A stretch of DNA of 64,000 nucleotides, from contig CAJTEY010000004.1 in NCBI GenBank assembly GCA_910575775.1, forward strand, positions 62,001 through 126,000, in the 5' to 3' direction. Below, piece after piece: positions 1 through 13,730 of the stretch. Under the pieces are notes generated by a model that worked only from the letters and a program-made list of their open reading frames with translations, did not search any database and was not told the DNA's origin. The DNA comes from Lachnospiraceae bacterium. GTDB lineage: Bacteria > Bacillota > Clostridia > Lachnospirales > Lachnospiraceae. The translations under genes were made by a program, and so were the position numbers. Numbering within the stretch: the stretch's first letter is position 1; every line of letters starts with the position of its first letter.

Positions 1-160
1 TGCCCTGCCTTATGGTAAGATAAAGACAGGGCAATTCTTTGGGAAGAACCCTGCGGGCATCCGGCACTTTCAGTTTGGCAATTGGCAGTGCCGGTTGCTT
101 TGTTTCTGTTCCCTCCCTAACATGGAAAACTCTTTGTTTGATTCTGGATGTCATATCCAT
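1..160 (-). CDS. partial unknown protein of the conjugative element (5' end only)
   Basis: An open frame starts at an ATG at 160 (a second in-frame ATG is at 154) and runs off the left edge without a stop, giving 53 visible residues that begin MDMTSRIKQR. An AGGGA sequence about 11 bases upstream could serve as ribosome site. I do not recognise the family. It lies downstream of a palindromic element copy (194-218) and of a small membrane protein gene in the same orientation, so it is probably the next gene of the conjugation operon. Its reality rests only on the uninterrupted frame and context. Confidence 0.4.
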   Translation of the reverse strand, partial: MDMTSRIKQRVFHVREGTETKQPALPIAKLKVPDARRVLPKELPCLYLTIRQG

Positions 161-193
161 TGGTTAATCTGTTCCCTATTCAGTTGTCTTTTT

Positions 194-218
194 ACTTGTG
201 GTCACAATGTCCACAAGT
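194..218. repeat. 25-bp palindromic element, copy 1
   Basis: Perfect 8-bp inverted arms ACTTGTGG and CCACAAGT are separated by the 9-base spacer TCACAATGT. It lies in the gap after the 72-residue membrane protein gene. It is one of seven copies found only in the left 10 kb of the window. Confidence 0.9.
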
Positions 219-230
219 TCTGCCACACGC

Positions 231-449
231 TCATTCCCCTAAAAGAATCGTATATGCGTCCGCGATCCGCTGATACTGCTTAAGTTCCTGCATGGCTCTG
301 TAACGGAAAACACCCACCAGCGCCATACACAACAGAGCAGTCAAAAGCCATGCGGCCAGACGTTTCCTCGACTTTTCATCCGCGCCGGGAAAAAGTTTCT
401 CCCCTACCCAGCCCGTGAGCCTGTCAAAGCCATCCCTTACCTTCTTCAT
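231..449 (-). CDS. small single-span membrane protein
   Basis: A 72-residue protein starting MKKVRDGFDR. The ATG at 449 is chosen because AGGAGG lies 8 bases upstream; a longer in-frame start at 479 has no such site. A charged, amphipathic N-terminus is followed by one hydrophobic segment (about residues 32-48, around AAWLLTALLCMALVGVF) and a short polar tail. It lies directly downstream of the VirD4-type coupling-protein gene, the position where small membrane proteins of the mating channel are usually encoded in Firmicutes conjugative elements. No specific family is recognised, and a role in mating-pair formation is only an inference from position. Confidence 0.6.
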   Translation of the reverse strand: MKKVRDGFDRLTGWVGEKLFPGADEKSRKRLAAWLLTALLCMALVGVFRYRAMQELKQYQRIADAYTILLGE

Positions 450-477
450 ACGGTCTGCCTCCTTTCCTAACGTTCTC

Positions 478-502
478 ACCTGTGGTCACAATGTCCACAA
501 GT
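478..502. repeat. 25-bp palindromic element, copy 2
   Basis: ACCTGTGG and CCACAAGT arms (one mismatch, a C for the usual third-position T) flank TCACAATGT. It fills the gap between the stop codon of the coupling-protein gene (503) and the ribosome site of the next gene. Confidence 0.85.
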
Positions 503-2338
503 TTATAACACTCCGGCATCGAAAACTTCCTCCACCACATCGGTGTCGTGTAACCTTGCCTTTCCCCGGTTCCTCATGTATTTTTCGATGTCGAAAGTAT
601 TCTTTGGGTCATAATCGAACAACAGCGGGTACTGCTTGTGCTGAGTAATATCGTATTTGTTTGAGAAAAAAGGTCTCACGCCCCTAAGCCGCATGATACA
701 CTTGCTGCCGTCCATAACCGCTATCTCATCCTCACTCATCAGCGCTTTTCCGGTTTTCTGGTAATTCATACCGTAGGACTGCGACGTGCCTCTTGTGTCC
801 GAAGTATTGCAGAGGTCTATCGTCTCCTTTCCCAGAACCTCCGCAAGCTCCTTAAGGGTGGTCTGCTCCTGCCCTCCCAGAAAAAGAAGGGTGTCGCAGT
901 TTCCCTGTATGGTGTCCGCATTATCCTTATAAATCGCCTTAAGCTGGGATTTCGACTGCAAAATAATAGAAGCTGATATCTCGCGGCTCCTGATCGTCGC
1001 AATCAGCTTCTCAAAATTGGGGATCTGCCCAATATTTGCAAATTCGTCCAAAAGAAAACGCACATGTATGGGCAGTCTCCCATGGTATATGTCGTCTGCC
1101 TTATCACAGAGCAGATTAAATAGCTGGGTGTACATGATGCTCACGAGGAAATTGAAAGTCGCGTCCGTATCGGAAATGATGACAAACAGCGCCGTCCTTT
1201 TCTCCCCCAGCGTGTCAAGTTCCAGTTCGTCATATGCCGTCAGCTCGCGCAGCTCCTTTATATCAAAGGGAGCAAGGCGCGCCCCGCAGGAAACAAGTAT
1301 ACTTTTCGCCGTTTTGCCCGCCGCAAGCTTAAACTTGGCATATTGGCGCACCGCGAAGTGATGAGGGTCCCTTTCCTTTAGTTCGTCAAAGAGCCTGTCC
1401 ACCACATTTTTGAAATTTTCGTCATCTTCCCTTACTTCGCTTGCGTCCACCATGTCGATGAGCATGGGAAAATTCTGCTCCTCTGGCGGAGCCTCATACC
1501 AGATATAGGCAATCAGCGCCGTGTAATACAGCTTTTCCGCCTTCACCCAGAAATCCTCACTGGATTGCTGCCCCTCCCCCTTGGTGTTTAAGATGATCGT
1601 ATTTACGAGTTTCAAAATATCTTTCTCGCTCCGAATATAGACAAAAGGGTTGATGTGCATGGATTTTGCAAAGTTGATGGTGTTTAAGACTTTTATCTGA
1701 TAACCATTCTTTACCAGCATCTTTCCGCACTCTTCGAGGATGGTGCCTTTCGGATCAGTGACACAATAAGAACCATTCATCTGCATAAGGTTCGGCTTTA
1801 CGAAAAAACGGGTCTTGCCCGATCCCGAACCGCCTATGACTAACACGTTTTTATTTCTCGCATATTTAGGCTGTTTCGGTCTGCCCGACATCATAAGACG
1901 CTCCGTTGCCGTCAGGATCACGTTATTCTCAAAAACCGGGTCTATGTATGGCTGAATATCCTTTGCCGTTCCCCAGCTTGCGGAGCCGTACTCCGTCCCG
2001 TGGCGAAACTTTTTGGCGTTCTTCCTCTTACAGTACACGACCAGAAAAAACACCGTGCCGCCGCAGATACCCGCCAGTAAATCCGCAGGATGCAAGCTGG
2101 GCAGGGGATTGTGAAAACTGCCGCCCAGATCGTTCAGCGTATAGAGAAGGTTCTGAAAGAAATTCCCCCTGTCCTCATGGCGGTACTGCCACGAAATCTT
2201 ATCCGACACATACCCGAAGGTCAGATAAGGCGCACCGCTCAAAAACAGTTTTTTCGGTTCTATGCCCTGCACCGCTCCCCTTACCCTGCCCGGAATCGAG
2301 AGCAGGTCGTTCTTTATGCCGTTCAGTATTTTATTCAT
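503..2338 (-). CDS. VirD4/TraG-type conjugative coupling protein (ATPase)
   Basis: A 611-residue membrane-anchored ATPase of the VirD4/TraG family. It docks the relaxase-DNA complex on the type IV secretion channel during conjugation. A hydrophobic segment lies near residues 86-103. The Walker A motif GGSGSGKT is at 169-176, and the Walker B region FLLDEF ends near residue 433. The TDPKGTI motif after the first strand and the late QSKSQL segment are also typical. The length fits the family. The start overlaps the end of the upstream pcfB-like gene by four bases, so the two are translationally coupled, as in many Firmicutes integrative conjugative elements. The gene appears intact. Confidence 0.93.
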   Translation of the reverse strand: MNKILNGIKNDLLSIPGRVRGAVQGIEPKKLFLSGAPYLTFGYVSDKISWQYRHEDRGNFFQNLLYTLNDLGGSFHNPLPSLHPADLLAGICGGTVFFLVVYCKRKNAKKFRHGTEYGSASWGTAKDIQPYIDPVFENNVILTATERLMMSGRPKQPKYARNKNVLVIGGSGSGKTRFFVKPNLMQMNGSYCVTDPKGTILEECGKMLVKNGYQIKVLNTINFAKSMHINPFVYIRSEKDILKLVNTIILNTKGEGQQSSEDFWVKAEKLYYTALIAYIWYEAPPEEQNFPMLIDMVDASEVREDDENFKNVVDRLFDELKERDPHHFAVRQYAKFKLAAGKTAKSILVSCGARLAPFDIKELRELTAYDELELDTLGEKRTALFVIISDTDATFNFLVSIMYTQLFNLLCDKADDIYHGRLPIHVRFLLDEFANIGQIPNFEKLIATIRSREISASIILQSKSQLKAIYKDNADTIQGNCDTLLFLGGQEQTTLKELAEVLGKETIDLCNTSDTRGTSQSYGMNYQKTGKALMSEDEIAVMDGSKCIMRLRGVRPFFSNKYDITQHKQYPLLFDYDPKNTFDIEKYMRNRGKARLHDTDVVEEVFDAGVL

Positions 2339-2808
2339 AAACTCTGCCCCCGATCCATCTGTTTTTCTCTTGTGCGCTCCCGGTTCTGGTCTTTTTCCAT
2401 ACCCTGCCTCATCTGTTTCATCTTCGCCCGGATAGACACACGCTGTTTTTTCTTCTCATTGGCACGGACAAACTCCTTAAACGCCTGCACGATCAAATCC
2501 GAGTCCTTCGCCTTAAAAAAGACCAGATATTTAGGCGGGTCTGCCGTCCTGTCCCTCTTGACAGAAAAATCCACGTTATATTTCCCCGCAATCCGGCTGA
2601 AGGACTTGATATTTTCGTCTGTGATCTCGATGGACTTCGCGCCCTGGTTCTGTGCCAGCAGTTTCTTCACCGAGATTTTTCCGTGAGAAGGCTCCCTATG
2701 CCTCCTGTGTTCCAGATACGCCTTAAATGCACGCAGCAACACATCCGTGGTCAGCCTTGCCGACTTAAACGTGATGGCTATGGTTTTTTGTGTCACTTCT
2801 TCCTGCAT
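2335..2808 (-). CDS. PcfB family protein (DUF3801)
   Basis: A 157-residue soluble protein resembling PcfB of enterococcal conjugative plasmids and DUF3801 proteins of Firmicutes conjugative elements. These are almost always encoded just before the VirD4 coupling protein and are thought to act with it at the relaxosome. The N-terminal half contains the recognisable stretches VTQKTIAITF and LLRAFKAYLEH; the C-terminal third is very basic and rich in Lys, Arg and Gln, consistent with nucleic-acid or partner binding. It ends with a four-base overlap with the coupling-protein start. The family call rests on sequence character plus the diagnostic neighbour. Confidence 0.82.
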   Translation of the reverse strand: MQEEVTQKTIAITFKSARLTTDVLLRAFKAYLEHRRHREPSHGKISVKKLLAQNQGAKSIEITDENIKSFSRIAGKYNVDFSVKRDRTADPPKYLVFFKAKDSDLIVQAFKEFVRANEKKKQRVSIRAKMKQMRQGMEKDQNRERTREKQMDRGQSL

Positions 2809-2840
2809 GTTATTTTCTCCCTCCTTTACTCCCTCTCCCG

Positions 2841-2975
2841 CTTTACACCGTGTCGGTAATCAAGGGCAAGGAACAGGTATGTCCCTGCCCTTGCCCCTAT
2901 GGTACGGCTATCGCCCGCGTCAAGGGGGTAGTATTTTGCTCCGCAAAATCTCCACCCTTTTCCTTGACACGGAAG
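2841..2975. other. non-coding region with nested inverted repeats; candidate origin of transfer
   Basis: The 254-base gap between pcfB and the AP2-domain gene has no convincing gene but several inverted repeats: CCGTGTC (2848-2854) with GACACGG (2966-2972), CAAGGGCA (2861-2868) with TGCCCTTG (2886-2893), GTCAAG with CTTGAC, and ATTTTGC with GCAAAAT around a three-base loop near 2932-2948. Dense inverted repeats in a gene-free gap next to coupling-protein genes are what an origin of transfer looks like. Attenuators or operators could look the same. The relaxase gene is not in this window. Confidence 0.4.
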
Positions 2976-3012
2976 TTACGCTGTGGCTTACGCCTACAGA
3001 TATCCTCCCGCC

Positions 3013-3037
3013 ACTTGTGGTCACAGTGTCCACAAGT
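3013..3037. repeat. 25-bp palindromic element, copy 3
   Basis: ACTTGTGG and CCACAAGT arms flank TCACAGTGT. The inverted match extends by two more bases on each side here (3011-3039). It lies just after the stop of the AP2-domain gene. Confidence 0.9.
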
Positions 3038-3062
3038 GGTCACTCTGGAAGGCTATTGCGGC

Positions 3063-3839
3063 TTACTGTCTCATAATCTCCTGCATCCTGTCTCTATAAT
3101 AATTTTTGTAAAAGTTTCGGTTGCTGTCATACTTCTTTATTGCCTCCTGCCTTTCTTCTTCGGTGAGGGAATCGTACCATTCGATAAAATCATCCCGAAT
3201 CTGGCGCATCTGTTGTCTTGCGCGGATGGCGTCCTCTAAGCTGTGGCAGGTTTTTTGGGCGTAGTATCCCTGAAAGCGGCAGTATGCCACCCATACGTCG
3301 CGGGTGGTGATATAGCTTACGCCCTGGTAGCCGGATGTGTTGGCTTTGGTGGGTTCCTCGTCTTTTCTGCGGATTTCCACAATGTTTGTCCCCATGACAC
3401 GGTTCCTCTCCAGATTGGCATAATGTTTTCGCCCATGCTCGGAATTGCCGATGAACCATGCCCGGCTGCAGCCGCAGGAGTGCGTGGGGTTTGTTTTCTT
3501 TGTCACTTCCGAGATGGGTCTCTCAATGATCGTTCCGCAGTCACAGCGGAATCTCCATATCCGCTGTTTGGTCTTGTTTGATTTCCCGGTGGGTTCCATT
3601 GCCACAAGGCTGCCAAAGCGCTGGCCCGTGATATCGCGGCGTTGTTTCTGGTGCTGTATCTCGGCATAGCAGCCGCAACTGCACATACGGTCTTTGCTCA
3701 GATAGCTGGTTGATTTGTAGACGATCTTCCCGCAGTCGCATCTGCATTTCCATATGACGTTGCCGAAGTTGCGCTGATCGGTTGGCTCGATGGCTGTGAG
3801 CATACCGAATCTTTCATTCTGGATGTTTATTCTTTTCAT
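3063..3839 (-). CDS. AP2-domain protein with two Cys-rich (zinc-ribbon-like) repeats
   Basis: A 258-residue protein, started at the ATG at 3839 because GGAGG lies 5 bases upstream. An in-frame GTG farther upstream would read through palindrome copy 4. The N-terminal half has two related modules, each with RFG(M/S)L, a CDCG motif and a later CSCGC or HSCGC motif, suggesting two metal-binding ribbons. Residues about 165-220, with SGYQGVSY and WVAYCRFQG, resemble an AP2 DNA-binding domain like those in phage and homing-endonuclease proteins. A basic, Tyr/Asn-rich tail follows. It is probably a DNA-binding protein of the mobile element; I see no nuclease motif. It stands alone between two palindrome copies. 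Confidence 0.7.
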   Translation of the reverse strand: MKRINIQNERFGMLTAIEPTDQRNFGNVIWKCRCDCGKIVYKSTSYLSKDRMCSCGCYAEIQHQKQRRDITGQRFGSLVAMEPTGKSNKTKQRIWRFRCDCGTIIERPISEVTKKTNPTHSCGCSRAWFIGNSEHGRKHYANLERNRVMGTNIVEIRRKDEEPTKANTSGYQGVSYITTRDVWVAYCRFQGYYAQKTCHSLEDAIRARQQMRQIRDDFIEWYDSLTEEERQEAIKKYDSNRNFYKNYYRDRMQEIMRQ

Positions 3840-3851
3840 ACTTTCCTCCAT

Positions 3852-3876
3852 ACTTGTGGTCACAATGTCCACAAGT
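3852..3876. repeat. 25-bp palindromic element, copy 4
   Basis: ACTTGTGG and CCACAAGT arms flank TCACAATGT. It lies immediately upstream of the ribosome site of the AP2-domain gene. Confidence 0.9.
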
Positions 3877-3883
3877 TCTCCAA

Positions 3884-3939
3884 AACGTAAAAAGGCAGAT
3901 ACTTGACCGTTATGGTTTCGTATCTGCCTTACCGCTGTG
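3884..3939. repeat. 56-bp direct repeat, left copy, with 11-bp hairpin (probable terminator)
   Basis: This sequence recurs at 9511-9566 in the same orientation with three differences. Its core is an inverted repeat, AAGGCAGATAC (3892-3902) with GTATCTGCCTT (3920-3930). On the minus strand the hairpin is followed by TTTT, so it can act as an intrinsic terminator for the KAP-family gene that ends at 3953. Confidence 0.85.
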
Positions 3940-3952
3940 TTTTGTTATGCTG

Positions 3953-6900
3953 CTATTTATTTTGTTTTTCTGTTTCCTCTACTTCCTCTACTCTTTCCGT
4001 TTCCTTTGTTACCTCTGTTCCCTCTTTTTCCCTTGTTTCCTCCATTTCCCCTGCTCTTTCTTTTTCCTTTGTTTCATCCTTACAATGCTCATTAAATTTA
4101 TAGACATAGACTTTGATTTCATTAATCGTATTCTGTGCATCATACCCTGTTAATCCATCCAATTTGCAAGCCAGTTCTTTTACTTCTTTCAACAGCTTCG
4201 CAATGTCCCGCTTCTTATCTCCAAACCAAGCCGGATCTGCCTCATATTGAACAATTATACGATAAGACAACCTGAGTAATAGCAACGAATAGTCGGAGTT
4301 ATAATTGTTTTCATTTCCTATATAAAACTTTTTCAATAATTCTAATGCTTCTATGAAAGCAGCGGAATCCACAAACATTTCTCTGCGTAACCCATACCCG
4401 TTTTCGACAAAATATTTTCTAGGAAATACTGTCTTCGCATCCTCATTCTTGTCAATATAATCTCTTACCCCATTCCAAAATCTGCAAATATCAAATACTA
4501 TTTTATTCCTTGAAAACAGGCCCTCTAAGTCTAATCCCAAATCTTTATACTTTTCATCCATTAATTCAATTTCCAGATTTTTATAATATGTTTCTATACT
4601 CAATAATTTATTCGTTTTATCCTCAAGTCCCTTAAATCTTGCATTTTTATCAATTCTCTCGAGTACAGTATAAAATCCATCTACATCTCTAAGAAAGAAA
4701 TTATCCCATTTTTCCATAACGATAGTTATATCAAACAGAATAAGTAAAACAATCATAAACTGGTTTTTATTATCCTCTAATGTCCTGTCAACAACTGAAA
4801 TACCTTCTCGCACGCACGTTATCTTCTCAACATCTGACATTCCTTTTTTTACCAGACACTCCATTAATCTTTTGGAAAAATCCAGAAAATCTTTTGTATC
4901 TGCCTTAAAGGGATTGGCGCGTTGAGATAATACATTAAAAATCATTTCTATAAAATTATAATTAGTAACTCCTTTATTCAATTCCTGGTTTTCATATATA
5001 TCCAGTATTTTGTTCAAATCTTCATATGTCTGGGCAAACTCGATATATTCCTTTATATGTTTTACTGAAGTCTGATCATTATGTAATTCAGAAAGGTATG
5101 TGTCACGAATGGTTTTAATCCGTGAAAAATCTATTACATCTATTTTATATATAATAGTATCCAATAGGGCTTCCTGTTTTTCACTGTGATATAAGAGTCC
5201 ATATTTTAGATCAAAAATCATATCTACCGCATAGCCGTCATATTTTTGATAAAATTCAAAAATATTTCTCTTCATTTTTATGTCATTAAAAACTTCCGGC
5301 ATAAAATTCCTAATATACTCCACTTTAATAATTGCCGCGAACCAGTCCTCCTCCCGAAGTTCTCCTTCGATCATATCTCTATCGTCTTTGAACGCATCCG
5401 CATCCCTTTTAATTCCTTTTAAGTAATTCTTTACTTTTCTGGGAATTGCAATATCCTTTTTTATTCTAAGAATTAGCTGCTGAAGCTCTTCAACTTTCTT
5501 TTTGCTCCTATTAAGTTCCACATCTTTCTTCTTTTGCTGACTCTCCTGCTCTGTCGATATTTCAGCTTCTATCTTCTCTATAAGACAAATAGGAAATCTG
5601 CACACTGCCTCTCTTATCTGCTCTGCACTCCTGTCTCTCAACAGAATGGGATTCATATATTGGATAAGCCTATCATCCAATATATCCTTAATTACAAATT
5701 TTACAATCTCAAGATAATCAACCTCACATAAATCCAGGGTGTAACTCACATATTTCTCAATATAATTGGCATCCTGCTCCTCAGTGAGAAACTTTGTTTT
5801 ATCAACCAGAAATATCGTTTTGCAGTTGTGAAGTTCCATACTTTCCCGAATTACTTTGAACATCTTTAGCTGATAATCTCTATCGCATCTGTCCAAATCG
5901 TCAATAATCAAATAAATAACCTTATCCAACTCATCTAACTTACTATTTAAGTATTTACTTTCATCTATACTTTTTTTATTCAGCATAACGCCAGCCATTT
6001 TCTTTAATGGCTTTAATGTGGTATCTTCAAGTAAATCAGAAAAAGCAAGAAAATACTTTTCAATCAGATCCTGACGATCTAAAAAGATATTATTCTCCTT
6101 GAGTACCGCCATAATCTGACCTGAAATCTCTGACATGATTTCTGCAACATTTTTTTCACTTCCTGCACGAACCCATATAAAACTGCTTTCTTCTAATGTT
6201 TTTTCCAGTGCCTGAACAAAGCTGGTTTTTCCCTTCCCCCACTCTCCTGAAATCATAACTGCATATGGCTCATATCTCTGTTCTTTCAATACTGCAATAA
6301 ATCTCTCTAATTGTCTTTTTCTTGTTGGATACAAATCGGGATCTGGATCATCACACCACTTATTTTTCTCCTTCTCTTTCCTCTCTTTTTTCTTATACAC
6401 CAACTTTTCCAACACTTTAGTCATCACTTCTGCAGAAATAATTCCTAATGTAACCGTTACCCATTCCAGAAAATCCAAATGCTGTGTAACCGCCAATAAA
6501 AACAGTTCCACAAAAATGAAGAACTGAATATACCTACAGCTTTGTTGCATCGGCAATAATATCTGCCGAAACATAAGGCATAATAAAATACCATATGCAA
6601 TCGTAGCCCCAACAATAAACATAAAAACTACTGCATTGAAATAAACATACTCTATCTCTAATTTTGCCCCCATCTGACAAAGTAATGTACCCATTCCAGC
6701 TACAATGGCACTATAAATCCCTTTATAAATCAGGCTATTTATATTATAATTTATTCTCTTTTTACTTGTCTTTGGATGGAGTTCTTCATTTTTTACTGCA
6801 TGAGTTCTATTCTTAACAAACTCAATGAAGTCTTTCAAGCAACGAGAGATATCATCTATGAAAGTATAGATAAAACCAAATATTGCAACAATTATAAAGA

Positions 6901-6976
6901 TAGCTGAAAAACACTCAAGTATCTCCGTACTATAAAAATAATATTGATCTATAATATTTTCTATTATAGCCATCAT
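3953..6976 (-). CDS. membrane-anchored KAP-family P-loop NTPase
   Basis: A 1007-residue protein with about four hydrophobic segments in the N-terminal 185 residues (roughly 21-40, 83-104, 111-137 and 150-182). These are followed by a cytoplasmic P-loop NTPase: Walker A GEWGKGKT at 244-251 and Walker B YLIIDDLDRCD at about 355-365. This combination of membrane spans and an IIDDLDR Walker B is characteristic of KAP NTPases, several of which occur in mobile elements and anti-phage loci. The C-terminal ~45 residues are a Glu/Lys/Thr-rich repetitive tail. The coding sequence is conspicuously AT-rich compared with both neighbours, indicating separate acquisition. GGAGG precedes the ATG pair at 6976/6973. 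The function is unknown; defence is a hypothesis. Confidence 0.85.
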   Translation of the reverse strand: MMAIIENIIDQYYFYSTEILECFSAIFIIVAIFGFIYTFIDDISRCLKDFIEFVKNRTHAVKNEELHPKTSKKRINYNINSLIYKGIYSAIVAGMGTLLCQMGAKLEIEYVYFNAVVFMFIVGATIAYGILLCLMFRQILLPMQQSCRYIQFFIFVELFLLAVTQHLDFLEWVTVTLGIISAEVMTKVLEKLVYKKKERKEKEKNKWCDDPDPDLYPTRKRQLERFIAVLKEQRYEPYAVMISGEWGKGKTSFVQALEKTLEESSFIWVRAGSEKNVAEIMSEISGQIMAVLKENNIFLDRQDLIEKYFLAFSDLLEDTTLKPLKKMAGVMLNKKSIDESKYLNSKLDELDKVIYLIIDDLDRCDRDYQLKMFKVIRESMELHNCKTIFLVDKTKFLTEEQDANYIEKYVSYTLDLCEVDYLEIVKFVIKDILDDRLIQYMNPILLRDRSAEQIREAVCRFPICLIEKIEAEISTEQESQQKKKDVELNRSKKKVEELQQLILRIKKDIAIPRKVKNYLKGIKRDADAFKDDRDMIEGELREEDWFAAIIKVEYIRNFMPEVFNDIKMKRNIFEFYQKYDGYAVDMIFDLKYGLLYHSEKQEALLDTIIYKIDVIDFSRIKTIRDTYLSELHNDQTSVKHIKEYIEFAQTYEDLNKILDIYENQELNKGVTNYNFIEMIFNVLSQRANPFKADTKDFLDFSKRLMECLVKKGMSDVEKITCVREGISVVDRTLEDNKNQFMIVLLILFDITIVMEKWDNFFLRDVDGFYTVLERIDKNARFKGLEDKTNKLLSIETYYKNLEIELMDEKYKDLGLDLEGLFSRNKIVFDICRFWNGVRDYIDKNEDAKTVFPRKYFVENGYGLRREMFVDSAAFIEALELLKKFYIGNENNYNSDYSLLLLRLSYRIIVQYEADPAWFGDKKRDIAKLLKEVKELACKLDGLTGYDAQNTINEIKVYVYKFNEHCKDETKEKERAGEMEETREKEGTEVTKETERVEEVEETEKQNK

Positions 6977-7038
6977 ACCATTTTCCTCCAGTTTCTCATT
7001 GATTACCCAATCACGATATTTTTCGTTCTTTCTGTTCT

Positions 7039-7066
7039 ATTATATCAGATATTTTTGCAGAAACTA
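7039..7066 (-). promoter_or_regulatory. extended -10 promoter of the KAP NTPase gene
   Basis: On the minus strand TGATATAAT gives a perfect extended -10 (TATAAT at 7039-7044, TG at 7046-7047). A weak -35 (TAGTTT, 7061-7066) lies 16 bases upstream. It sits about 60 bases before the start codon and outside the adjacent insertion sequence, so the KAP gene keeps its own promoter. Confidence 0.6.
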
Positions 7067-7079
7067 TTTTCAACAGACA

Positions 7080-7092
7080 ATTTTCTCTTCTT
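7080..7092. repeat. 13-bp direct repeat flanking the insertion sequence, left
   Basis: ATTTTCTCTTCTT recurs at 8794-8806. Each copy is separated by exactly six bases from the adjacent terminal inverted repeat. It is longer than the usual 2-3 bp duplication of IS30-family elements. Confidence 0.6.
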
Positions 7093-7098
7093 CGAAAA

Positions 7099-8787
7099 TT
7101 GAAATTTTAAATTCCACTTTTAGACAATTCAGTGGAATTTACCTCTGCATAAGTGGAGTTTACTCTTTCACATATCAGTGTTATACTCTCCATGCCCTCC
7201 TGACAGCAGTAGAAAGAGGTTCTCCATGAGTAAATACATACCAGGCAACCAGAAGCACCTTACCTTTGATGACCGTAAGTATATCGAAAAGTCTCTAAAC
7301 CAGGGGCTTTCCTTCAAAGAGATCGCCAAGTACCTGTGTAAAGACCCTACCACCATCTCAAAGGAGATCAGGGCCCACCGGCTCAGTGACTGGTATCATA
7401 AGGGCACTTTCTACAATGCCCATAACTTCTGTATCCACCGTTACCGCTGCAGGAAGACTAACGTATGCCGTAAGATCATCCTCTGTGATGTGAAATGTGC
7501 TTCCTGTCCTACCTGTAACCAGACCTGTCCCGATTTTGCCAAGGAACGCTGTGACCGCCTCGATAAAGCACCCTATGTCTGTAATGGATGTCCAAAAGCC
7601 ATAAACCACTGCACCATCGCCCACAAATACCGCTATGATGCTAAATTCGCTGACAGGAAGTACAGGGAACTCCTTACGGATTCCCGCTCCGGCATCAGTA
7701 TGACAAAGCATGAACTGCGGCAGAAGGATATGGTCATCTCCCCGCTCATCTCCCAGGGTCAGTCCCCTTACCAGATCGTAACAAACCACCCGGAACTGGA
7801 TATGTCCGTCAGGACTCTTTATACCTATCTGGATGAGGGGCTCTTTACCGCAAGGAATATCGACCTAAAACGCAAGGTAAAATTCAAACCTCGTAAGTGC
7901 CATAACACACAGATCAAAGACCGTGCCGTCTTTCAGGGAAGGATGTATACTGACTTTCAGGCGCTTTCCTCTGACCATTGGACGGAGATGGATACCGTTC
8001 ACTCCTCAAATGAGTCAAAAAAGGTACTCCTGACTTTCTTTTTAAAGCGGGAAAAACTCTTTCTGGCTTTCCTTATGAACCGTTGTACCAAAGGCGCTGT
8101 CCGTGCCGTATTCGACCGTCTGGAAAAGAAGATGGGCACTTATGATTTCCTGTGCCTTTTTCATACCCTCCTGACGGACAGGGGCTCTGAGTTTGGTGAT
8201 CCTGATACTCTGGAGGCAGGCATAAACGGCATAGAGAGGACTAACATCTATTACTGTGACCCCATGCGCAGCGGCCAGAAGGGCGGCGTTGAAAATGCCC
8301 ATACCATGCTCAGGATGGTACTGCCAAAAGGAACCAGTTTTGAATTCCTTACCCAGTGGGATGTGAACCTGATCGTAAACCACATCAATTCCACACCACG
8401 GGAAAGCCTTTCAGGAAAAACACCTTATGCAGCTGCACTGGAAGCATACGGTGAAGAAGTCCTGAAAGCACTTCAGCTTAGACCGGTCGACCCTGATGAA
8501 GTCAACCTGACGCCTAAGCTGATCAAATATAACCGTTAACAATCTTACAAAATCTGCTGTCAGGATGGAATTCAGACTTTCACATTTTTACCATGCTGCC
8601 GGTGGAATTTAGTCCGGCACACTAACTCTCCAGCGGTCTGTTTTCTATACCCTAAAACCAGATATTTTGTAAGAAGTTGTCTTGATTATAACAGAAACCG
8701 GGTGTTTTGACTCCTGGAAATCTCTATTTTCCTATAAATTTTAAACTGCAGTGGAATTTACTTCTGCACTGGAATTTAAAATTTCAA
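7099..8787 (+). mobile_element. IS30-family insertion sequence
   Basis: A 1.69-kb element bounded by 18-bp perfect inverted repeats, TTGAAATTTTAAATTCCA at 7099-7116 and its complement at 8770-8787. Just inside both ends lies a near-identical direct motif (CAGTGGAATTTAC, then C or T, then TCTGCA), plus further GTGGAATTTA-like copies, probably transposase-binding sites. It contains one intact transposase gene. It lies between the promoter of the KAP gene and palindrome copy 5, and does not interrupt a recognisable gene. Confidence 0.85.
7226..8539 (+). CDS. IS30-family transposase
   Basis: A 437-residue DDE transposase, the only clear plus-strand gene. It starts at the ATG at 7226 after AGAAAGAGG. 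The N-terminal HTH_38-type domain has LTFDDRKYIEKSL and KDPTTISKEIRAH. A Cys-rich segment (about residues 75-130, with repeated CxxC pairs) follows, as in a long-form clostridial branch of the family. The catalytic core shows WTEMDTV, LLTDRGSEF and KGGVENAHTMLR, which carry the three acidic residues. The C-terminal INSTPRESLSGKTPYAA segment is typical. The frame is intact, so the element may be active. Confidence 0.93.
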   Translation: MSKYIPGNQKHLTFDDRKYIEKSLNQGLSFKEIAKYLCKDPTTISKEIRAHRLSDWYHKGTFYNAHNFCIHRYRCRKTNVCRKIILCDVKCASCPTCNQTCPDFAKERCDRLDKAPYVCNGCPKAINHCTIAHKYRYDAKFADRKYRELLTDSRSGISMTKHELRQKDMVISPLISQGQSPYQIVTNHPELDMSVRTLYTYLDEGLFTARNIDLKRKVKFKPRKCHNTQIKDRAVFQGRMYTDFQALSSDHWTEMDTVHSSNESKKVLLTFFLKREKLFLAFLMNRCTKGAVRAVFDRLEKKMGTYDFLCLFHTLLTDRGSEFGDPDTLEAGINGIERTNIYYCDPMRSGQKGGVENAHTMLRMVLPKGTSFEFLTQWDVNLIVNHINSTPRESLSGKTPYAAALEAYGEEVLKALQLRPVDPDEVNLTPKLIKYNR

Positions 8788-8793
8788 GTCAGC

Positions 8794-8806
8794 ATTTTCT
8801 CTTCTT
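8794..8806. repeat. 13-bp direct repeat flanking the insertion sequence, right
   Basis: Second copy of ATTTTCTCTTCTT (first at 7080-7092), six bases outside the right terminal inverted repeat. Confidence 0.6.
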
Positions 8807-8817
8807 TCTATCTCACA

Positions 8818-8842
8818 ACTTGTGGTCACAATGTCCACAAGT
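8818..8842. repeat. 25-bp palindromic element, copy 5
   Basis: ACTTGTGG and CCACAAGT arms flank TCACAATGT. It directly follows the stop codon of the YodL-domain gene (8847). Confidence 0.9.
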
Positions 8843-8846
8843 TCCC

Positions 8847-9467
8847 TTACAATGACATTTCTTTCTGCTGTTTTCTCGTCGGGTGATCCTTCCCCACATC
8901 CGCCGATAAATTCTTGTACCCGGCAAGTTTTTCCTTAAGGGACTCTTTCCCTGCCACTCTGCCCTCTGACCGGGCACGGTCCGTTTCCTGCTCTTTTTCC
9001 CTCCTGTTCTCCAGCATACGGATAAAATGGGGCATTTCGGTATAACCCGTTGTATCGACATAATGCGCGGTGTTTTTCCCATCTTCCCGCAGCACCACGA
9101 TATCGCCCTTGGAGAGGGGATGTCCTGTGTAATCCCCCGGCTGATAGATATTAAATTTCTCAAAGAGAGCGTGCAGCGTATCTTCCTGTGTGTAGAGTCC
9201 GGCAGTCTTTGCTTTCAGTTCTGACAGGTCCCCTACATAGACCAGATCATAATTTTCCGGCTTAACCGCGACAGCCTCCGCATTTTCTTTGAGAATCCCC
9301 GCCTGCTTTAACGACCACGTCCCCTTAAAGCGCAGCCTGCTCAGTTCCGGATCGTCCCTTAACTGATAGATGCCGTATTTGTCGGCGCCGGATAAAAGCG
9401 CCGTCTCCTGCATCTGCTTTTCGTCCGCCATATCACTGTTTTCTGCTGCTCTTTGTTTTTCTGACAT
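8847..9467 (-). CDS. YodL-domain protein of the conjugative element
   Basis: A 206-residue hydrophilic protein. The central region (about residues 31-145) contains YGIYQLRDD, YDLVYVGDL, LFEKFNIYQPGDY, GDIVVLRED and YVDTTGY. This is the pattern of YodL-type domains found beside partition and replication genes on Firmicutes conjugative elements, often in larger antirestriction or LPD-containing proteins. The function of the domain is not established. The charged C-terminal 50 residues are Lys/Glu/Arg-rich. An AAGAAGG ribosome site precedes the ATG. It lies between direct repeat 9511-9566 upstream and palindrome copy 5 downstream. Confidence 0.7.
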   Translation of the reverse strand: MSEKQRAAENSDMADEKQMQETALLSGADKYGIYQLRDDPELSRLRFKGTWSLKQAGILKENAEAVAVKPENYDLVYVGDLSELKAKTAGLYTQEDTLHALFEKFNIYQPGDYTGHPLSKGDIVVLREDGKNTAHYVDTTGYTEMPHFIRMLENRREKEQETDRARSEGRVAGKESLKEKLAGYKNLSADVGKDHPTRKQQKEMSL

Positions 9468-9510
9468 AATAAAACCTTCTTTCTTCGATATTTTTCAAAT
9501 TTGTGTGTGA

Positions 9511-9566
9511 AACGAAAAAAGGCAGATACTTGACCGTTCTGGTTTCGTATCTGCCTTATCGCTGTG
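9511..9566. repeat. 56-bp direct repeat, right copy, with 11-bp hairpin (probable terminator)
   Basis: Second copy of the repeat at 3884-3939, with three differences. The hairpin arms AAGGCAGATAC (9519-9529) and GTATCTGCCTT (9547-9557) are followed on the minus strand by TTTTTTCG, a good intrinsic terminator or attenuator ahead of the YodL-domain gene. Confidence 0.85.
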
Positions 9567-9573
9567 AATCGTC

Positions 9574-9598
9574 ACTTGTGGTCACTGTGTCCACAAGT
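9574..9598. repeat. 25-bp palindromic element, copy 6
   Basis: ACTTGTGG and CCACAAGT arms flank TCACTGTGT, and the arms extend one further base on each side. It lies just after the stop of the 106-residue protein gene. Confidence 0.9.
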
Positions 9599-9609
9599 GG
9601 AATGTTTGG

Positions 9610-9930
9610 TTACAGTTCCTGCATCCCTCTATGTACCTGCCGTTTTCTATGGTTACCGCCGTCTGACAGGGCATTTCCCTGTTCTCTGGCAAGCCGTTCC
9701 TTCAGTGACGGGCGCGCCTGTTCTTTCTGGCGCTGCCATTCCTCTATCACTTTGGGAGATATTTTTTCGTATCCGGCAATGCGGTAGCCCTCCTCATACA
9801 TCTCCGCATAGCTGTCATAACCGTATTCACCTGCCCGCATTTCCAGATAGTCGGGCGCGGGAATCCTGCCGACATTGGTCTTAACGTCCGTATCCAGCCG
9901 TTCAAAAAGCGCCTGTCTGTTTTCCTCCAT
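9610..9930 (-). CDS. unknown 106-residue element protein
   Basis: A short hydrophilic protein beginning MEENRQALFE, preceded by GGGGGAG seven bases upstream of the ATG. It has a Tyr/Glu/Gly-rich centre (EYGYDSYAEMYEEGY) and a basic, Gln/Arg-rich C-terminus with no membrane segment or metal motif. I do not recognise a family. It lies between palindrome copies 6 and 7, downstream of the replication initiator gene, and is probably part of the same transcription unit. The ribosome site and the tight intergenic punctuation support it as a real gene. Confidence 0.6.
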   Translation of the reverse strand: MEENRQALFERLDTDVKTNVGRIPAPDYLEMRAGEYGYDSYAEMYEEGYRIAGYEKISPKVIEEWQRQKEQARPSLKERLAREQGNALSDGGNHRKRQVHRGMQEL

Positions 9931-9951
9931 ACACTCCCCCTTATCCTGTTT

Positions 9952-11097
9952 TCACTTGTGGCCACAATGTCCACAAGTGGTTATAATGCCTTTCTCCTCC
10001 CACCCGCCGCCATACATATCGTGGCTGACTTCCTGCTGGTAATAGTGTTTCATGGTTGCAGGAGCGTTAAAGAGAGCGGTCAGCAAGTATGCCTTGACGT
10101 TAGCGATCTTGACCGTGGTACTCTGCATACAGTCAATGACGTACTGCAGATGGAAACTGTTCAGCTTGAGGAATCTCTCCCTGACCATCTCACAGGGATA
10201 GGCTTCCCCGCCGATCCTGACGGTGCCATGCCTCATGCACACGGTCCCGCAGATCAGTTCGTACAACTCCTCGTAGAGTTCCCGGTCTAAACGGCTGTCA
10301 TCGCCCATGTAGGCATCGTAGTCAATGTTGTGTCTGATCTGCTCTATGTATCCGCGCTGCTCCCCATCCATCCCATCGCTCTCTGATGGATAGATGGAGT
10401 AATCTCTGCAGGTATTCTCTGCAGTATTCTCTGTATTCGTGTCTCCGTTTTGGGACAGAGGTGTATCCCGTTTGGGAGGGAGGGTGTATACCTGCGGGTA
10501 GGGAGCTGTATCCGAATCTGTAGGGTGCTGTGTCCCGTTTGGGATACCCCTCCCTCCGAAAATTTCCATAGGGGTGTCCGGTTTTGTAGGGAGTCTCCCT
10601 CCCGTTTTGTCACCAGCACCCGCCGGGCATGGCTTTGTCTGCCTGTCCACGCCCGGTTCTTCTTCCGGATAGGTCAATTCATACACTCTGGCGGGAATCA
10701 GTTCCACATACATGACGTTGTTGGAGATAAGCCCGTCTCCGTGAGATACTGTACGGAAATGGCGCTTTACTGCCTGCAGTTCTTCCAGCCTGTCTATGGC
10801 TGTCTTTACGGTTTTCTTTGACTCTCCGAACAGATCCGCATAGTATTGATAGCTCTGGCGCAGGATATCCTCGGAAAACCGCTTTCTCCACCCGGTGATC
10901 TGTCCCGTGTTCTGGTCACGCACTTCTGTCGGACGATACCAGTACACGATATCCGAAAGGATCGCGATCGCAAGCAGATAGGGCTTGCCGTTCTCTTTCA
11001 GCACTGTCTTATACCAGATGGTCGGGACGATGTTTCCCGTTATATTTATGGTTCCCATCGCGTCAACAATGGGATTGCCGCTGCTCAGATAACCCAT
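9952..11097 (-). CDS. replication initiator-like protein (DUF6017-type C-terminus)
   Basis: A 381-residue protein starting at the ATG at 11097, which overlaps the parB stop by one base (TGATG). The N-terminal ~120 residues contain TIWYKTVLKENGKPY, AIAILSDIVYWYRP and a winged-helix-like segment (FGESKKTVKTAIDRLEEL). This resembles replication initiator proteins of Firmicutes plasmids and conjugative elements. A Pro/Thr-rich linker follows, then a C-terminal region (LYELICGTVC, VIDCMQSTTVKIANVKAYLL) like DUF6017. The last six codons and the stop lie inside palindrome copy 7, giving the odd ending GHCGHK. Its position beside ParB and ParA supports a maintenance role. Confidence 0.72.
   Translation of the reverse strand: MGYLSSGNPIVDAMGTINITGNIVPTIWYKTVLKENGKPYLLAIAILSDIVYWYRPTEVRDQNTGQITGWRKRFSEDILRQSYQYYADLFGESKKTVKTAIDRLEELQAVKRHFRTVSHGDGLISNNVMYVELIPARVYELTYPEEEPGVDRQTKPCPAGAGDKTGGRLPTKPDTPMEIFGGRGIPNGTQHPTDSDTAPYPQVYTLPPKRDTPLSQNGDTNTENTAENTCRDYSIYPSESDGMDGEQRGYIEQIRHNIDYDAYMGDDSRLDRELYEELYELICGTVCMRHGTVRIGGEAYPCEMVRERFLKLNSFHLQYVIDCMQSTTVKIANVKAYLLTALFNAPATMKHYYQQEVSHDMYGGGWEEKGIITTCGHCGHK
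9954..9978. repeat. 25-bp palindromic element, copy 7
   Basis: ACTTGTGG and CCACAAGT arms flank CCACAATGT. This copy overlaps the 3' end of the replication initiator gene, so the palindrome encodes the end of that protein. Confidence 0.9.
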
Positions 11098-11978
11098 CAG
11101 CGCACCGCTCCTTCCCCTTTCCACTTCTCCAACAGCCCGATGATAACCTCCTCTATCTCCTCATTGCTGTAATCCTCCGGGAAGTAGCGGGTAATCTTGT
11201 CCGCTTTGAGGGTGACTTTACGCTCTTTCGGCTTTTCTTCGGAAAGGATCAGGCTTACCATTGCAGGTGTCAGCTCCCCAGTTTTCCCATACTCTTTCAG
11301 CTTTGCCGACTGTGCTGCATTTACGCCTGCACCTGCCTCTGCTATCAGCGAATGAACCCACCCCTGCGCCTCCTCCGCAAGAAAGGAAATATCCACGCCC
11401 TGCATGAACCCTAATTTCTTCCTGTCCACCAGATCGAGCAGTCCGTCTGACAGGCGTGACAGCCAGAGATACCTCTGGATTGTCTTAGCGCTCTCACCGG
11501 CATCCTCCCCCATCTCCTCAATGGTCTTGCCTCCTGCCTTTTTGCCCTGGTGTTTCAGGGCATCGTATTTCATCCGGTAGGCTTTCGCCTTTTCGCTGGG
11601 TAAGATATCCTCCCGCTGGATGTTGGAGTCCACCATGATGATCGTCGCCTCGTCATCCGTGTAATCCCGAACAACGAAGGGCATCGTCTCTTTTCCTGCC
11701 AGTTCCGATCCGTGTTTTCGGCGGTGTCCGGCTATGATCTCATAGCCGCCGCCCTTTCTCGGTCTTGCAATCCCCGGCACCAGAACACCGTGCTGTCTGA
11801 TGCTTTCTACCGTTTCTTCCATCTTTCCATCATCCAAAACCCGAAAAGGATGGTTTTTGAAGTTATGTAAACTACTTAAAGGTACTTCTATAATCTGTTC
11901 CCCTTCCGTCTCGCCAAACAAAGCATCATAACCGCCCAATTTGATTTTATCCGCAAGGTTTTTCCTCGTATTAGCCAT
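11097..11978 (-). CDS. parB: ParB/Spo0J-type partition protein
   Basis: A 293-residue ParB family protein. The ATG at 11978 overlaps the parA stop by eight bases and has GAGG upstream. The N-terminal ParB/Srx fold includes VPLSSLHNFKNHPFRV, the ARPRKGGGYEIIAGHRR box and the MVDSNIQRED segment. A central helix-turn-helix (about residues 130-175) lies around GESAKTIQRYLWLSRL. The C-terminus is charged (KKxx-type) and may dimerise. In the family, ParB loads on parS sites and spreads, working with ParA to segregate DNA. The parS site is not known here, but the local palindromes are candidates. It is part of a tightly coupled parA-parB-rep operon. Confidence 0.9.
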   Translation of the reverse strand: MANTRKNLADKIKLGGYDALFGETEGEQIIEVPLSSLHNFKNHPFRVLDDGKMEETVESIRQHGVLVPGIARPRKGGGYEIIAGHRRKHGSELAGKETMPFVVRDYTDDEATIIMVDSNIQREDILPSEKAKAYRMKYDALKHQGKKAGGKTIEEMGEDAGESAKTIQRYLWLSRLSDGLLDLVDRKKLGFMQGVDISFLAEEAQGWVHSLIAEAGAGVNAAQSAKLKEYGKTGELTPAMVSLILSEEKPKERKVTLKADKITRYFPEDYSNEEIEEVIIGLLEKWKGEGAVR

Positions 11979-12753
11979 TAGCAAGCACCTCCTCTGTCAG
12001 CCTTTCGTAAGCAGCGGCTACTTTACCCTTCGGATCGTGTGTATAAATGCTGATCCCTGCCGCCGAGACTTCCGCCGCCCTGACAGAAATGGGGATGGTA
12101 CTGTCATAGATTCTCACTTTATCGCCATAGTTTTCGATCAGAAGGCCGCTGATCTCTCTGGCGTAGGTTGTCCGACTGTCCACCATCGTCATTAAAATAC
12201 CCTCTATCTCCAGTTTCGGGTTAATCTGGCGCTTTACCTTGCCGATCGTCCTGATAAGCTGCTCCAGTCCTTTGAGTGACAGATATGCCGCCTGCACGGG
12301 TATCAGCACCGAATCGGCACAGGCGAGGGCATTGATCGTTATCATGCCAAGCGACGGGGTACAGTCAATCAAAATATAGTCATACTCCGCCGATACGAGA
12401 GACACATACGCCCGCAGCACGGTCTCCCGGCTCATGATGTTCACTAACGACACTTCTATGCCAGACAGTTCTATGTTCGCGGGGAGCAGGTCAACGCCCT
12501 CCTTGTGGTGCAGTATCCCTTCGGACGGTTCCGGGTAATCCTCATTCACGATCCGCTCCATGATTGTCGCAAGCGTCACCTCCAGCCTGTCCGGTTCCGT
12601 ATATCCCAGACTCGCCGTAAGGCTGCCCTGCGCGTCTGCGTCAATCAAAAGCACTCTTTTACCCCGTTTTGCCATTCCAATTCCTAAGTTCCCTGTTGTG
12701 GTGGTCTTGCCCACTCCACCTTTCTGATTTGCGATTGCAATCACTTTACACAT
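11971..12753 (-). CDS. parA: ParA-type partition ATPase
   Basis: A 260-residue Walker-type ATPase. The deviant Walker A motif KGGVGKTTT is at 11-19, the YILIDCTPSLG Walker B-like segment at about 127-137, and the SVLIPVQAAYLSLKGLEQL switch region follows. The length matches the short, Soj-like ParA class without an N-terminal DNA-binding extension. The ribosome site GGAGG lies 7 bases before the ATG. ParA forms ATP-dependent dimers on DNA and drives partition with ParB, whose start overlaps this gene's end. In an integrated element the pair stabilises any excised circular form. Confidence 0.95.
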   Translation of the reverse strand: MCKVIAIANQKGGVGKTTTTGNLGIGMAKRGKRVLLIDADAQGSLTASLGYTEPDRLEVTLATIMERIVNEDYPEPSEGILHHKEGVDLLPANIELSGIEVSLVNIMSRETVLRAYVSLVSAEYDYILIDCTPSLGMITINALACADSVLIPVQAAYLSLKGLEQLIRTIGKVKRQINPKLEIEGILMTMVDSRTTYAREISGLLIENYGDKVRIYDSTIPISVRAAEVSAAGISIYTHDPKGKVAAAYERLTEEVLANG

Positions 12754-12768
12754 GGTTTTTCCTCCGAT

Positions 12769-12951
12769 TTAGTTTGACTTTTGTTTGATATTGGCTTTCT
12801 GTACTTCCACATATGCCCTATAAAATCTGTCAGTACCCTTGTTTGGATACATCTCCGAGACTTCCGTCACAGCTACCTTTCGCTGCCTGCGCAAAAGCCT
12901 CTCAAACCACTTAATATCATTCTTCGTTCCCATCAGTCGAATTTTCAGCAC
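12769..12951 (-). CDS. DUF3970-like small protein
   Basis: A 60-residue protein beginning at a GTG at 12951 with AGGAGG four bases upstream. The sequence MLKIRLMGTKNDIKWFERLL followed by a basic stretch and a VYVEV-like strand (here RAYVEVQK) resembles the DUF3970 family of conjugative elements. Its start overlaps the end of the DUF6075 gene by 35 bases and it lies just before parA, so it is in the same operon. The function is unknown. Confidence 0.7.
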   Translation of the reverse strand: MLKIRLMGTKNDIKWFERLLRRQRKVAVTEVSEMYPNKGTDRFYRAYVEVQKANIKQKSN

Positions 12952-13435: not shown

Positions 13436-13490
13436 TTTCTTTCCTCCTTATGGATTTCATTAAAAAGATGAGAAATGGTTTTAAGGAAAC

Positions 13491-13564
13491 ACTATAATTG
13501 AGTAAACTTCGCCGAAGATTGTGAACACTCATTTTACTCAACATCGCACTTGAGTAATACTCAA
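13491..13564 (-). promoter_or_regulatory. operator-like TTGAGTAA array and probable promoter of the maintenance operon
   Basis: Upstream of the DUF6075 gene, TTGAGTAAA (13498-13506) and TTTACTCAA (13533-13541) form a perfect 9-bp inverted repeat. A third palindrome, TTGAGTAATACTCAA, lies at 13550-13564. A TATAGT -10 candidate is at 13491-13496, but no good -35 is seen. The TTGAGTAA half-site therefore occurs four times, as expected for cooperative binding of a dimeric regulator controlling the DUF6075-DUF3970-parA-parB-rep operon. Confidence 0.6.
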
Positions 13565-13636
13565 CTTGAAGTGATTTTAGACGATTTCAGACGGTAAAAG
13601 GCGGTATTTCTGTCTTTCCTTCTTAGATAACAAAAA

Positions 13637-13693: not shown

Positions 13694-13730
13694 TCATCAT
13701 TTTTTACATTATTTCAGATGCAAACTTCGC

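What the first reader, a model, noticed from the sequence alone, without database searches (positions are those of the whole stretch)
194..9978. Seven copies of a 25-bp palindrome punctuate the genes of the conjugative element
ACTTGTGG-N9-CCACAAGT occurs at 194, 478, 3013, 3852, 8818, 9574 and 9954. The arms are perfect in six copies and have one change in the seventh. Every copy is at a gene junction, and none lies inside the coupled pairs virD4-pcfB or rep-parB-parA. This could be a ParB-binding centromere set (parS), operator sites for an element regulator, or intercistronic RNA hairpins for processing. I know no described element with this exact sequence.
Basis: partly seen in the sequence, partly recalled or inferred. 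Interest (0 to 1): 0.75.

Follow-up and report, generated by a model that had tools for sequence, protein, structure and literature searches.

The report
ParB centromere sites in mobile elements
The seven repeats are very probably the landing sites of the element's own ParB segregation protein, and many relatives of this protein carry the matching site inside their own gene, with a readable code linking amino acids to DNA bases.

Summary
In detail: seven copies in one orientation, 0.17 expected by chance. They are best explained as binding sites (parS) of the element's own ParB (11097-11984).

Among 173 ParB genes found by protein rather than by motif, 111 hold a 25-nt palindrome (at least 10 of 12 pairs) in codons of a disordered loop beside the helix-turn-helix; synonymous recodings give about 2. 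The sequence differs between elements but both arms change together. ParBs without the loop palindrome usually have one outside it: 34 of 49, against 5 of 84 ParBs with it. On a tree the dispersed systems, the window's included, form one group.

The bases covary with ParB residues that correspond to known parS contacts. In 147 motif-independent systems, Lys or Arg at the second recognition-helix residue goes with G at position 8 in 68 of 68. Training on distant ParBs predicts that base in 124 of 136. The window ParB (Lys167) fits. Mismatches show no G-U excess, so RNA hairpins are unlikely.

Not shown: binding, partition, or gene regulation. ParABS and parS inside parB are known kinds; a covarying site encoded in the ParB loop, and its dispersal in this ICE group, I found in none of ten paper searches.

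The parts
194..218 (+). parS-like palindrome copy 1
   Evidence: exact arms; 10/12 pairs; 12 bp after the stop of ORF 231-479
478..502 (+). parS-like palindrome copy 2, one change in an arm
   Evidence: (9/12 pairs); fills the gap between the virD4 stop (503) and ORF 479-231
3013..3037 (+). parS-like palindrome copy 3
   Evidence: (11/12 pairs); 25 bp after the stop of ORF 3063-3872
3852..3876 (+). parS-like palindrome copy 4
   Evidence: (10/12 pairs); just 5' of the likely ATG start of ORF 3063-3872
8818..8842 (+). parS-like palindrome copy 5
   Evidence: (10/12 pairs); 4 bp after the stop of the YodL-like ORF 8847-9467
9574..9598 (+). parS-like palindrome copy 6
   Evidence: (11/12 pairs); 11 bp after the stop of ORF 9610-9930
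9954..9978 (+). parS-like palindrome copy 7; encodes the C-terminal residues TCGHCGHK of the rep-like protein
   Evidence: (10/12 pairs; C-terminus printed)
11097..11984 (-). parB: ParB_N domain; GHRR at residue 86, NIQRE at 121; recognition-helix Ala166-Lys167; Ile155 at profile column 164; linker without a palindrome
   Evidence: PF02195 E 4.2e-17; TIGR00180 83.4 bits, cut-off 58.45; residue numbers
11971..12753 (-). parA, overlapping parB by 14 nt
   Evidence: (PF13614 E 1.8e-58)
9952..11124 (-). rep-like gene (DUF6017)
   Evidence: a relative in L032 has RepA_N plus DUF6017
503..2338 (-). virD4-like coupling protein, CD1115 family
   Evidence: (NF045973, 567.5 bits against cut-off 250)

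Best explanation
The seven palindromes are the binding sites of the element's own ParB, that is a dispersed parS set of a ParABS system on a Tn1549/CD1115-type conjugative element. A ParB dimer reads the two arms with its helix-turn-helix: the first two residues of the recognition helix and a residue at the start of the preceding helix choose the variable bases 6-9 of each arm. ParB loaded there would spread and engage the ParA encoded just upstream, to keep the excised or replicating element in both daughter cells. In many relatives the same kind of site is a single copy written into the parB gene itself, in codons of a disordered loop next to the helix-turn-helix; in the window's group that loop has been rewritten and the site occurs in one to several copies outside it, mostly between genes. 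Shown: the sites, the covariation of both arms, the covariation with ParB contact residues, the switch of location. Inferred: binding, loading, partition.
For: Loop palindromes in 111 of 173 motif-independent ParB genes, against a mean of 2.4 (largest 8) in 200 synonymous recodings. ParBs with a loop palindrome: 5 of 84 have another within about 9 kb; without: 40 of 55, or 34 of 49 after setting aside six whose outside hit is a neighbouring parB's loop; shuffles expect 0.2 and 0.5 copies in all. Covariation in the 147 motif-independent systems: the strongest of all tested pairs is profile column 176 (recognition helix) with palindrome position 8, z 12.6; then 175/8, 164/6, 176/9, 164/7. Lys/Arg176 with G8 in 68 of 68; Asn176 with C8 in 31 of 33; Asp176 with G9 in 12 of 12. 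Cross-validated on ParBs under 50% identical: 124 of 136 right at position 8 against 45 by the commonest base (11 of 147 skipped). Sixty-nine nearest-neighbour pairs: column 176 is the best of 257 columns for position 8 (p 2e-8). Independent pairs on a tree without loop and HTH columns: 17, of which 15.5 go the same way and 0 the opposite way, p 6e-5. By alignment to Thermus Spo0J and the spacing in PMC7383237, column 164 corresponds to Caulobacter ParB Gln162 and column 175 to Arg173, both listed as parS contacts. Some linker-less relatives carry closely spaced sites, as centromeres can (L485 three at 47 bp; L566 and L463 two at 65 bp). A ParA-like gene lies just upstream in 19 of 20 dispersed systems with enough sequence.
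Against: No binding or partition data exist here. 31 of 88 loop-type systems with enough upstream DNA have no ParA-like ORF within 4 kb, so for them partition is doubtful. Position 5, at which the window's arms differ from those of its sister elements, has no convincing link to any ParB column (best p 1.7e-3 of 257 columns). Prediction of positions 6, 7 and 9 is weaker (110 of 142, 96 of 142, 99 of 136). One of ten held-out records with a palindrome (L575) misses the code at position 8. Dispersed copies are enriched at gene junctions (59 of 89 against 1214 of 7600 random positions), which would also suit gene regulation. The tree is a FastTree, and 'one change of location' counts only systems in which a site was found.
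Confidence: 0.86

Rival explanations
1. The palindromes are ParB operators whose main job is to control element genes (KorB-like global regulation or road-blocking), not partition.
For: Copies sit mostly at gene junctions of the transfer and maintenance genes. KorB and Noc are among the structural matches. NAH7 ParB binding at parS is reported to activate transfer genes, and the same repeats are reported near transfer genes elsewhere (PMC12421886, abstract read). Some relatives lack a ParA-like gene nearby.
Against: A parA gene overlaps parB here, and one lies upstream in 19 of 20 dispersed systems. In 79 of 84 loop-type loci with flanks just one site was seen, inside parB. Junction placement is also expected for any site that is hard to fit into codons.
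Confidence: 0.3
2. Intercistronic RNA hairpins for processing, stability or attenuation.
For: The transcribed sequence folds (two of the seven copies tested: -13.9 and -10.8 kcal/mol, z -2.9 and -2.3). All seven copies have one orientation.
Against: In 111 of 173 relatives the palindrome is inside parB codons. Mismatches are A.C 37, G.T 20, other 45, so no G-U preference. Bases covary with ParB DNA-contact residues.
Confidence: 0.04
3. A mobile palindromic repeat that inserts between genes and into linkers, with no binding protein.
For: Homogeneous copies within an element, different between elements.
Against: One position in parB, 110 of 111 in one codon frame, and a base-to-residue code that holds on distant ParBs.
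Confidence: 0.02
4. Recombination sites that bound exchangeable gene cassettes.
For: Single genes lie between direct copies in the window (231-479, 3063-3872, 8847-9467, 9610-9930).
Against: Single copy inside parB in most loop-type loci; the covariation is with ParB. Association with a recombinase was not tested.
Confidence: 0.03

Closest known systems
Chromosomal ParABS with parS, and Noc with NBS (PMC7383237, passages read)
   Same: ParB fold; palindromic site; helix-turn-helix reads it; contacts Gln162 and Arg173 of Caulobacter ParB correspond to the covarying columns 164 and 175
   Different: Site is 25 nt with a 1-nt centre and a different, highly variable core; the passages describe two site types, here there are 75 cores at positions 5-9 in 147 systems
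parS inside a parB/spo0J gene on chromosomes (recalled for Bacillus subtilis; my searches and passages, showed no text that states it)
   Same: Site overlaps the ParB coding sequence
   Different: Here the site lies in one loop beside the helix-turn-helix across a mobile-element family and covaries with the protein
KorB of RK2/RP4 (structures 8qa9, 8qa8, 1r71; operator dispersal recalled)
   Same: ParB-fold protein; several dispersed sites on a conjugative element; possible double role
   Different: KorB operators have an unrelated sequence and are not in a ParB loop (both recalled)
NAH7 parS repeats (PMC12421886, abstract and section list read)
   Same: parS repeats near transfer and partition genes of conjugative elements
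   Different: Proteobacterial; sequences not compared here
ParR-parC families deciding plasmid compatibility in Clostridium perfringens (PMC9426499, abstract read)
   Same: Diversified centromere specificity that would let related elements coexist
   Different: Different protein class (ParMRC)

Membership tests
ParABS (type I) partition system | ParB-fold centromere-binding protein with helix-turn-helix | tested here: met
ParABS (type I) partition system | Walker-type ParA ATPase encoded next to parB | tested here: met
   Window parA overlaps parB; in relatives a ParA-like ORF upstream in 19 of 20 dispersed and 51 of 88 loop-type systems, 6 more labelled downstream, 31 none (14 and 46 further systems had too little upstream DNA)
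ParABS (type I) partition system | cis-acting palindromic parS recognised by that ParB | tested here: inconclusive
   Co-occurrence, complementarity and residue-base covariation support it; binding itself not testable here
ParABS (type I) partition system | CTP-dependent clamp loading and spreading | not testable with these tools
   GHRR and NIQRE present in the window ParB, judged by eye only
ParABS (type I) partition system | Stabilises inheritance of the replicon | not testable with these tools
   needs a stability assay
Tn1549/CTn-type ICE of Firmicutes | VirD4 of the CD1115 family with DUF3801 protein and rep-parB-parA module (set recalled) | tested here: met
   NF045973 567.5 bits, PF12687, PF19481, ParA, ParB
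Tn1549/CTn-type ICE of Firmicutes | Complete element with ends, relaxase and excision genes | tested here: inconclusive
   Relaxase and serine recombinase genes lie left of the window, but the ends were not defined and these may belong to another element
Chromosomal 16-bp parS | TGTTTCACGTGAAACA-type sequence (recalled) | tested here: not met
   The seven sites are a different 25-nt palindrome
Rfam RNA family | match above gathering score | tested here: not met
   0 matches in window 1-14000

The most novel reading that the evidence does not exclude
A large family of mobile-element ParB proteins carries its own centromere inside its own gene, in the codons of a disordered loop touching the DNA-reading domain, so that protein and site travel and diversify as one unit. 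An amino-acid-to-base code for positions 6-9, near-deterministic at position 8, makes much of the partition specificity, and so perhaps the compatibility group, of each plasmid, ICE or phage-plasmid readable from one gene. In one branch, that of the window, the site left the loop and multiplied between genes.
Probability: 0.75. Interest if true: 0.85.

Novelty: new variant of a known kind. Interest (0 to 1): 0.78.

Why it matters
To my knowledge the centromere sites of mobile elements in gut Firmicutes are mostly unknown. Here over a hundred can be read off directly, because the site is encoded in the parB loop or lies nearby with the same consensus. The natural pairs give a ready test set for how a helix-turn-helix changes its DNA target: by parsimony the key residue changed 55 times on a tree of 147 systems. 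It also offers a testable rule for which ICEs and plasmids can coexist: the three ICE-like regions of this one genome carry two arm types.

Tried and rejected
RNA hairpin reading: rejected on mismatch types, location in codons and covariation with ParB, although two copies do fold. Rfam: no match. Coding-only reading (the peptide T[SC]xQxxxK is conserved and the palindrome incidental): rejected, since synonymous recoding of the same peptides loses the palindrome. Motif bias: loci fetched by motif patterns were kept out of the counts; the window itself and L246 (a stretch fetched for its palindromes, whose ParB was also found by protein) are in them. The statistics include 21 motif-selected rows among 168; one search repeats the main ones of 40, 42, 67 and 72 on the other 147, with the same outcome. 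Methyltransferases with a ParB-like domain: L201 and L123, both found by the motif, carry the palindrome in the equivalent loop (L123 in another frame) and fit the code, but 0 of 4 loci with such relatives in which an ORF was parsed (L585, L586, L587, L589; L588 and L590 were not parsed) has one, so I make no general claim. The pattern ACTT-N5-CAA-N-TTG-N5-AAGT in viral contigs (stopped at its limit) also hits unrelated repeats, so the pattern alone is not diagnostic. Paper searches gave no description of this site family; only open-licence PubMed Central text was searched and I judged most papers by listing alone. Dropped rows: 258 hits became 248 with a full linker, 202 unique, 173 motif-independent; only the 139 ParBs from loci with flanks were used; seven ParBs (six tandem paralogues and L488), the EEA-type ParBs, and systems with no site found were left out.

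Full report
Observation. In the 4.9-Mb genome there is no further match with 0 or 1 mismatch and six with 2, five of them of a related type in two other ICE-like regions. All seven have one orientation. The genes around are a VirD4 of the CD1115 family, a DUF3801 protein, a DUF6017 rep-like protein, ParB and ParA, so a Tn1549/CTn-type conjugative element is the right setting. A KAP NTPase gene and an IS30-like transposase gene lie between copies 4 and 5 (the IS30 label is recalled, the Pfam hit is HTH_38).

First lead. The two other ICE-like regions of the genome read ACTTYTGGACNNNNNGTCCARAAGT, partly at equivalent junctions, and in one of them two copies lie in frame inside a 924-aa gene. A pattern scan of genomes (stopped at its limit) then showed two settings in Clostridia: several copies between genes, and a single copy inside a gene. 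Of 20 such genes translated, 18 read as ParB by eye, two as methyltransferases with a ParB-like front part; Pfam was run on five of the 20 and gave ParB_N for three and methylase domains for two.

Test without motif bias. ParB genes were collected by protein similarity with 100 larger stretches around some of them. Of 173 unique ones outside the motif-selected loci, 111 have a 25-nt window with a 1-nt centre and at least 10 of 12 pairs in the stretch between the LPSEKA helix and RYIRL; 37 are perfect. Recoding the same peptides with synonymous codons at each gene's own codon usage gives 2.4 on average, at most 8 in 200 trials. The consensus is A[CA]TT-N5-C[AC]-N3-[TG]G-N5-AA[GT]T. Positions 5-9 take all four Watson-Crick pairs and both arms change together: 60 different cores in 111. 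Mismatches are A.C 37, G.T 20, other 45, so there is no wobble preference.

Where the loop lacks it. The window ParB and its relatives have a different loop (KKAGGKTIEEMGEDAG and similar). Among 139 ParBs from loci with flanks, 55 have fewer than 10 pairs in the loop, and 40 of these have a palindrome of the same consensus elsewhere within about 9 kb; in six the hit is the loop of a tandem parB, which leaves 34 of 49 (one, L488, lies in its own parB outside the loop). Of 84 ParBs with a loop palindrome, 5 have another. Examples are L486 with five copies, L478 with four and L485 with three spaced 47 bp. On a FastTree without loop and helix-turn-helix columns the 34 dispersed systems form one group, a single change of location. 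Of 89 dispersed copies in the loci examined, some chosen by motif and some overlapping, 59 lie at gene junctions, against 1214 of 7600 random positions.

Who reads it. Each ParB was paired with its own half-site. On the 147 motif-independent systems (113 loop, 34 dispersed) the strongest residue-base link is profile column 176 with position 8 (z 12.6), then 175/8, 164/6, 176/9 and 164/7. On all 168 the first is the same; links of column 159, which lies within the palindrome's own codons, rank among the next and say nothing. Arg or Lys at 176 goes with G8 in 68 of 68, Asn with C8 in 31 of 33 and C9 in 33 of 33, Asp with G9 in 12 of 12, Glu with A9 in 6 of 6; Arg at 164 goes with G7 in 22 of 22, Asp with G6 in 28 of 29. 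Training only on ParBs under 50% identical (loop and HTH excluded) predicts position 8 in 124 of 136 cases against 45 for the commonest base; positions 6, 7 and 9 are right in 110 of 142, 96 of 142 and 99 of 136 (baselines 46, 68, 66). Position 5 has no convincing partner. Seventeen independent pairs on the tree go the same way in 15.5 on average and never the other way (p 6e-5). The HMMER alignment to Thermus Spo0J puts column 164 at the Gln of TQEE and columns 175-176 at the Arg-Ser of the recognition helix. By the spacing given in PMC7383237 these are Caulobacter ParB Gln162, Arg173 and residue 174; the paper lists 162 and 173 among parS contacts and 173 among the specificity residues (passages read). 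In the window ParB these are Ile155, Ala166 and Lys167. All 11 distantly related ParBs with Lys at that place have G8, as the window's sites do (on the set that includes motif-selected rows).

Held-out records. Twelve named plasmid or phage stretches, out of 80 hits listed, were fetched after the code was drawn up. Ten have a loop palindrome with at least 9 pairs (8 of them at least 11); two have none (L577, L584). Nine of the ten fit the code at position 8: Cohnella herbarum plasmid, Enterococcus faecalis plasmid LR962508, Streptococcus phage phi-SsuZKB4_rum, Monoglobus and Pusillibacter plasmids, Acetoanaerobium noterae pTPELB2 and three records labelled Subdoligranulum variabile. L575, a fourth such record, does not at position 8, but does at 9. 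Some have the same loop as training sequences (L573, L581, L582), so this is a check rather than an independent trial.

Structure. The AlphaFold model of a relative (L275, mean pLDDT 81) has a stretch of confidence under 50 at residues 149-159, which covers most of the palindrome-encoded peptide TSSQLGTK (153-160). The next helices are 163-171 and 175-184; the covarying residues are Asp164, the second residue of the first, and Arg175 and Asn176, the first two of the second (residue numbers counted on the alignment). The fold matches Noc, ParB and KorB. So the site is written where the protein tolerates changes, directly beside the domain that reads it.

Mechanism and limits. The best reading is a ParABS centromere: ParA-like genes lie just upstream in 19 of 20 dispersed and 51 of 88 loop systems, and some elements have closely spaced sites. 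The window ParB has LGGYDALFG at residue 16, which only loosely resembles the ParA-binding motif LG-R/K-GL given in PMC12704722 (passages read). For the 31 loop systems without a ParA-like neighbour partition is open. A regulatory role in addition is plausible, with NAH7 as a precedent (PMC12421886 abstract). Binding, partition and regulation are untested.

Known and new. ParABS is known, and parS within a parB gene has precedents on chromosomes (recalled). Ten paper searches found no account of this site family, of a loop-encoded site covarying with its reader, or of its dispersal in Tn1549-type elements. I therefore call it a new variant of a known kind.

Noticed in passing
window 3893-3935 and 9516-9558, - strand: Two near-identical terminator-like hairpins (GGCAGATAC...GTATCTGCC then a run of T; folding z about -6.5), each next to a palindrome copy and ahead of a gene: a duplicated attenuator or terminator.
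   Followed up: partly
window 3953-8539: A KAP NTPase gene (3953-6976, -) and a transposase-like gene with HTH_38 (7178-8539, +) occupy the interval between copies 4 and 5, probably cargo.
   Followed up: no
L557, L569, L570, L565, L525, L521: Tandem parB paralogues, one with a loop palindrome and the other with a weaker one or none.
   Followed up: no
31 loop-type loci, e.g. L534, L441, L553:2525-3451: ParB with its own site but no ParA-like ORF within 4 kb; function other than partition possible.
   Followed up: no
L201:4101-5345 and L123:3592-5088: Methyltransferases with a ParB-like front part carry the palindrome at the equivalent loop, in L123 in another reading frame, and fit the code; the four loci of relatives parsed do not carry it.
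   Followed up: partly
L461:8111-10366: Five copies of a second palindrome AATTGGGCTCCATTGGAGCCCAATT (one with a change), four of them spaced 86-87 bp, beside a ParB with a different loop palindrome; perhaps another ParB's sites.
   Followed up: no
L511:14661-16102: Three copies of a divergent palindrome (ACAAATGGACACTGTGTCCATTTTT type) in and near a linker-less parB, outside the consensus used.
   Followed up: no
L308, L321, L350, L355 and others: A recurrent near-palindrome ACTTCTTATCAAGTTGATTATAAGT, intergenic by the script's ORF calls, in many viral contigs; not in a parB loop and unrelated as far as seen.
   Followed up: no
L245:9029-9212: In the C7 element two palindromes lie in frame inside a 924-aa gene and encode TFGQKVQKS and TSGQKVQKS.
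   Followed up: no
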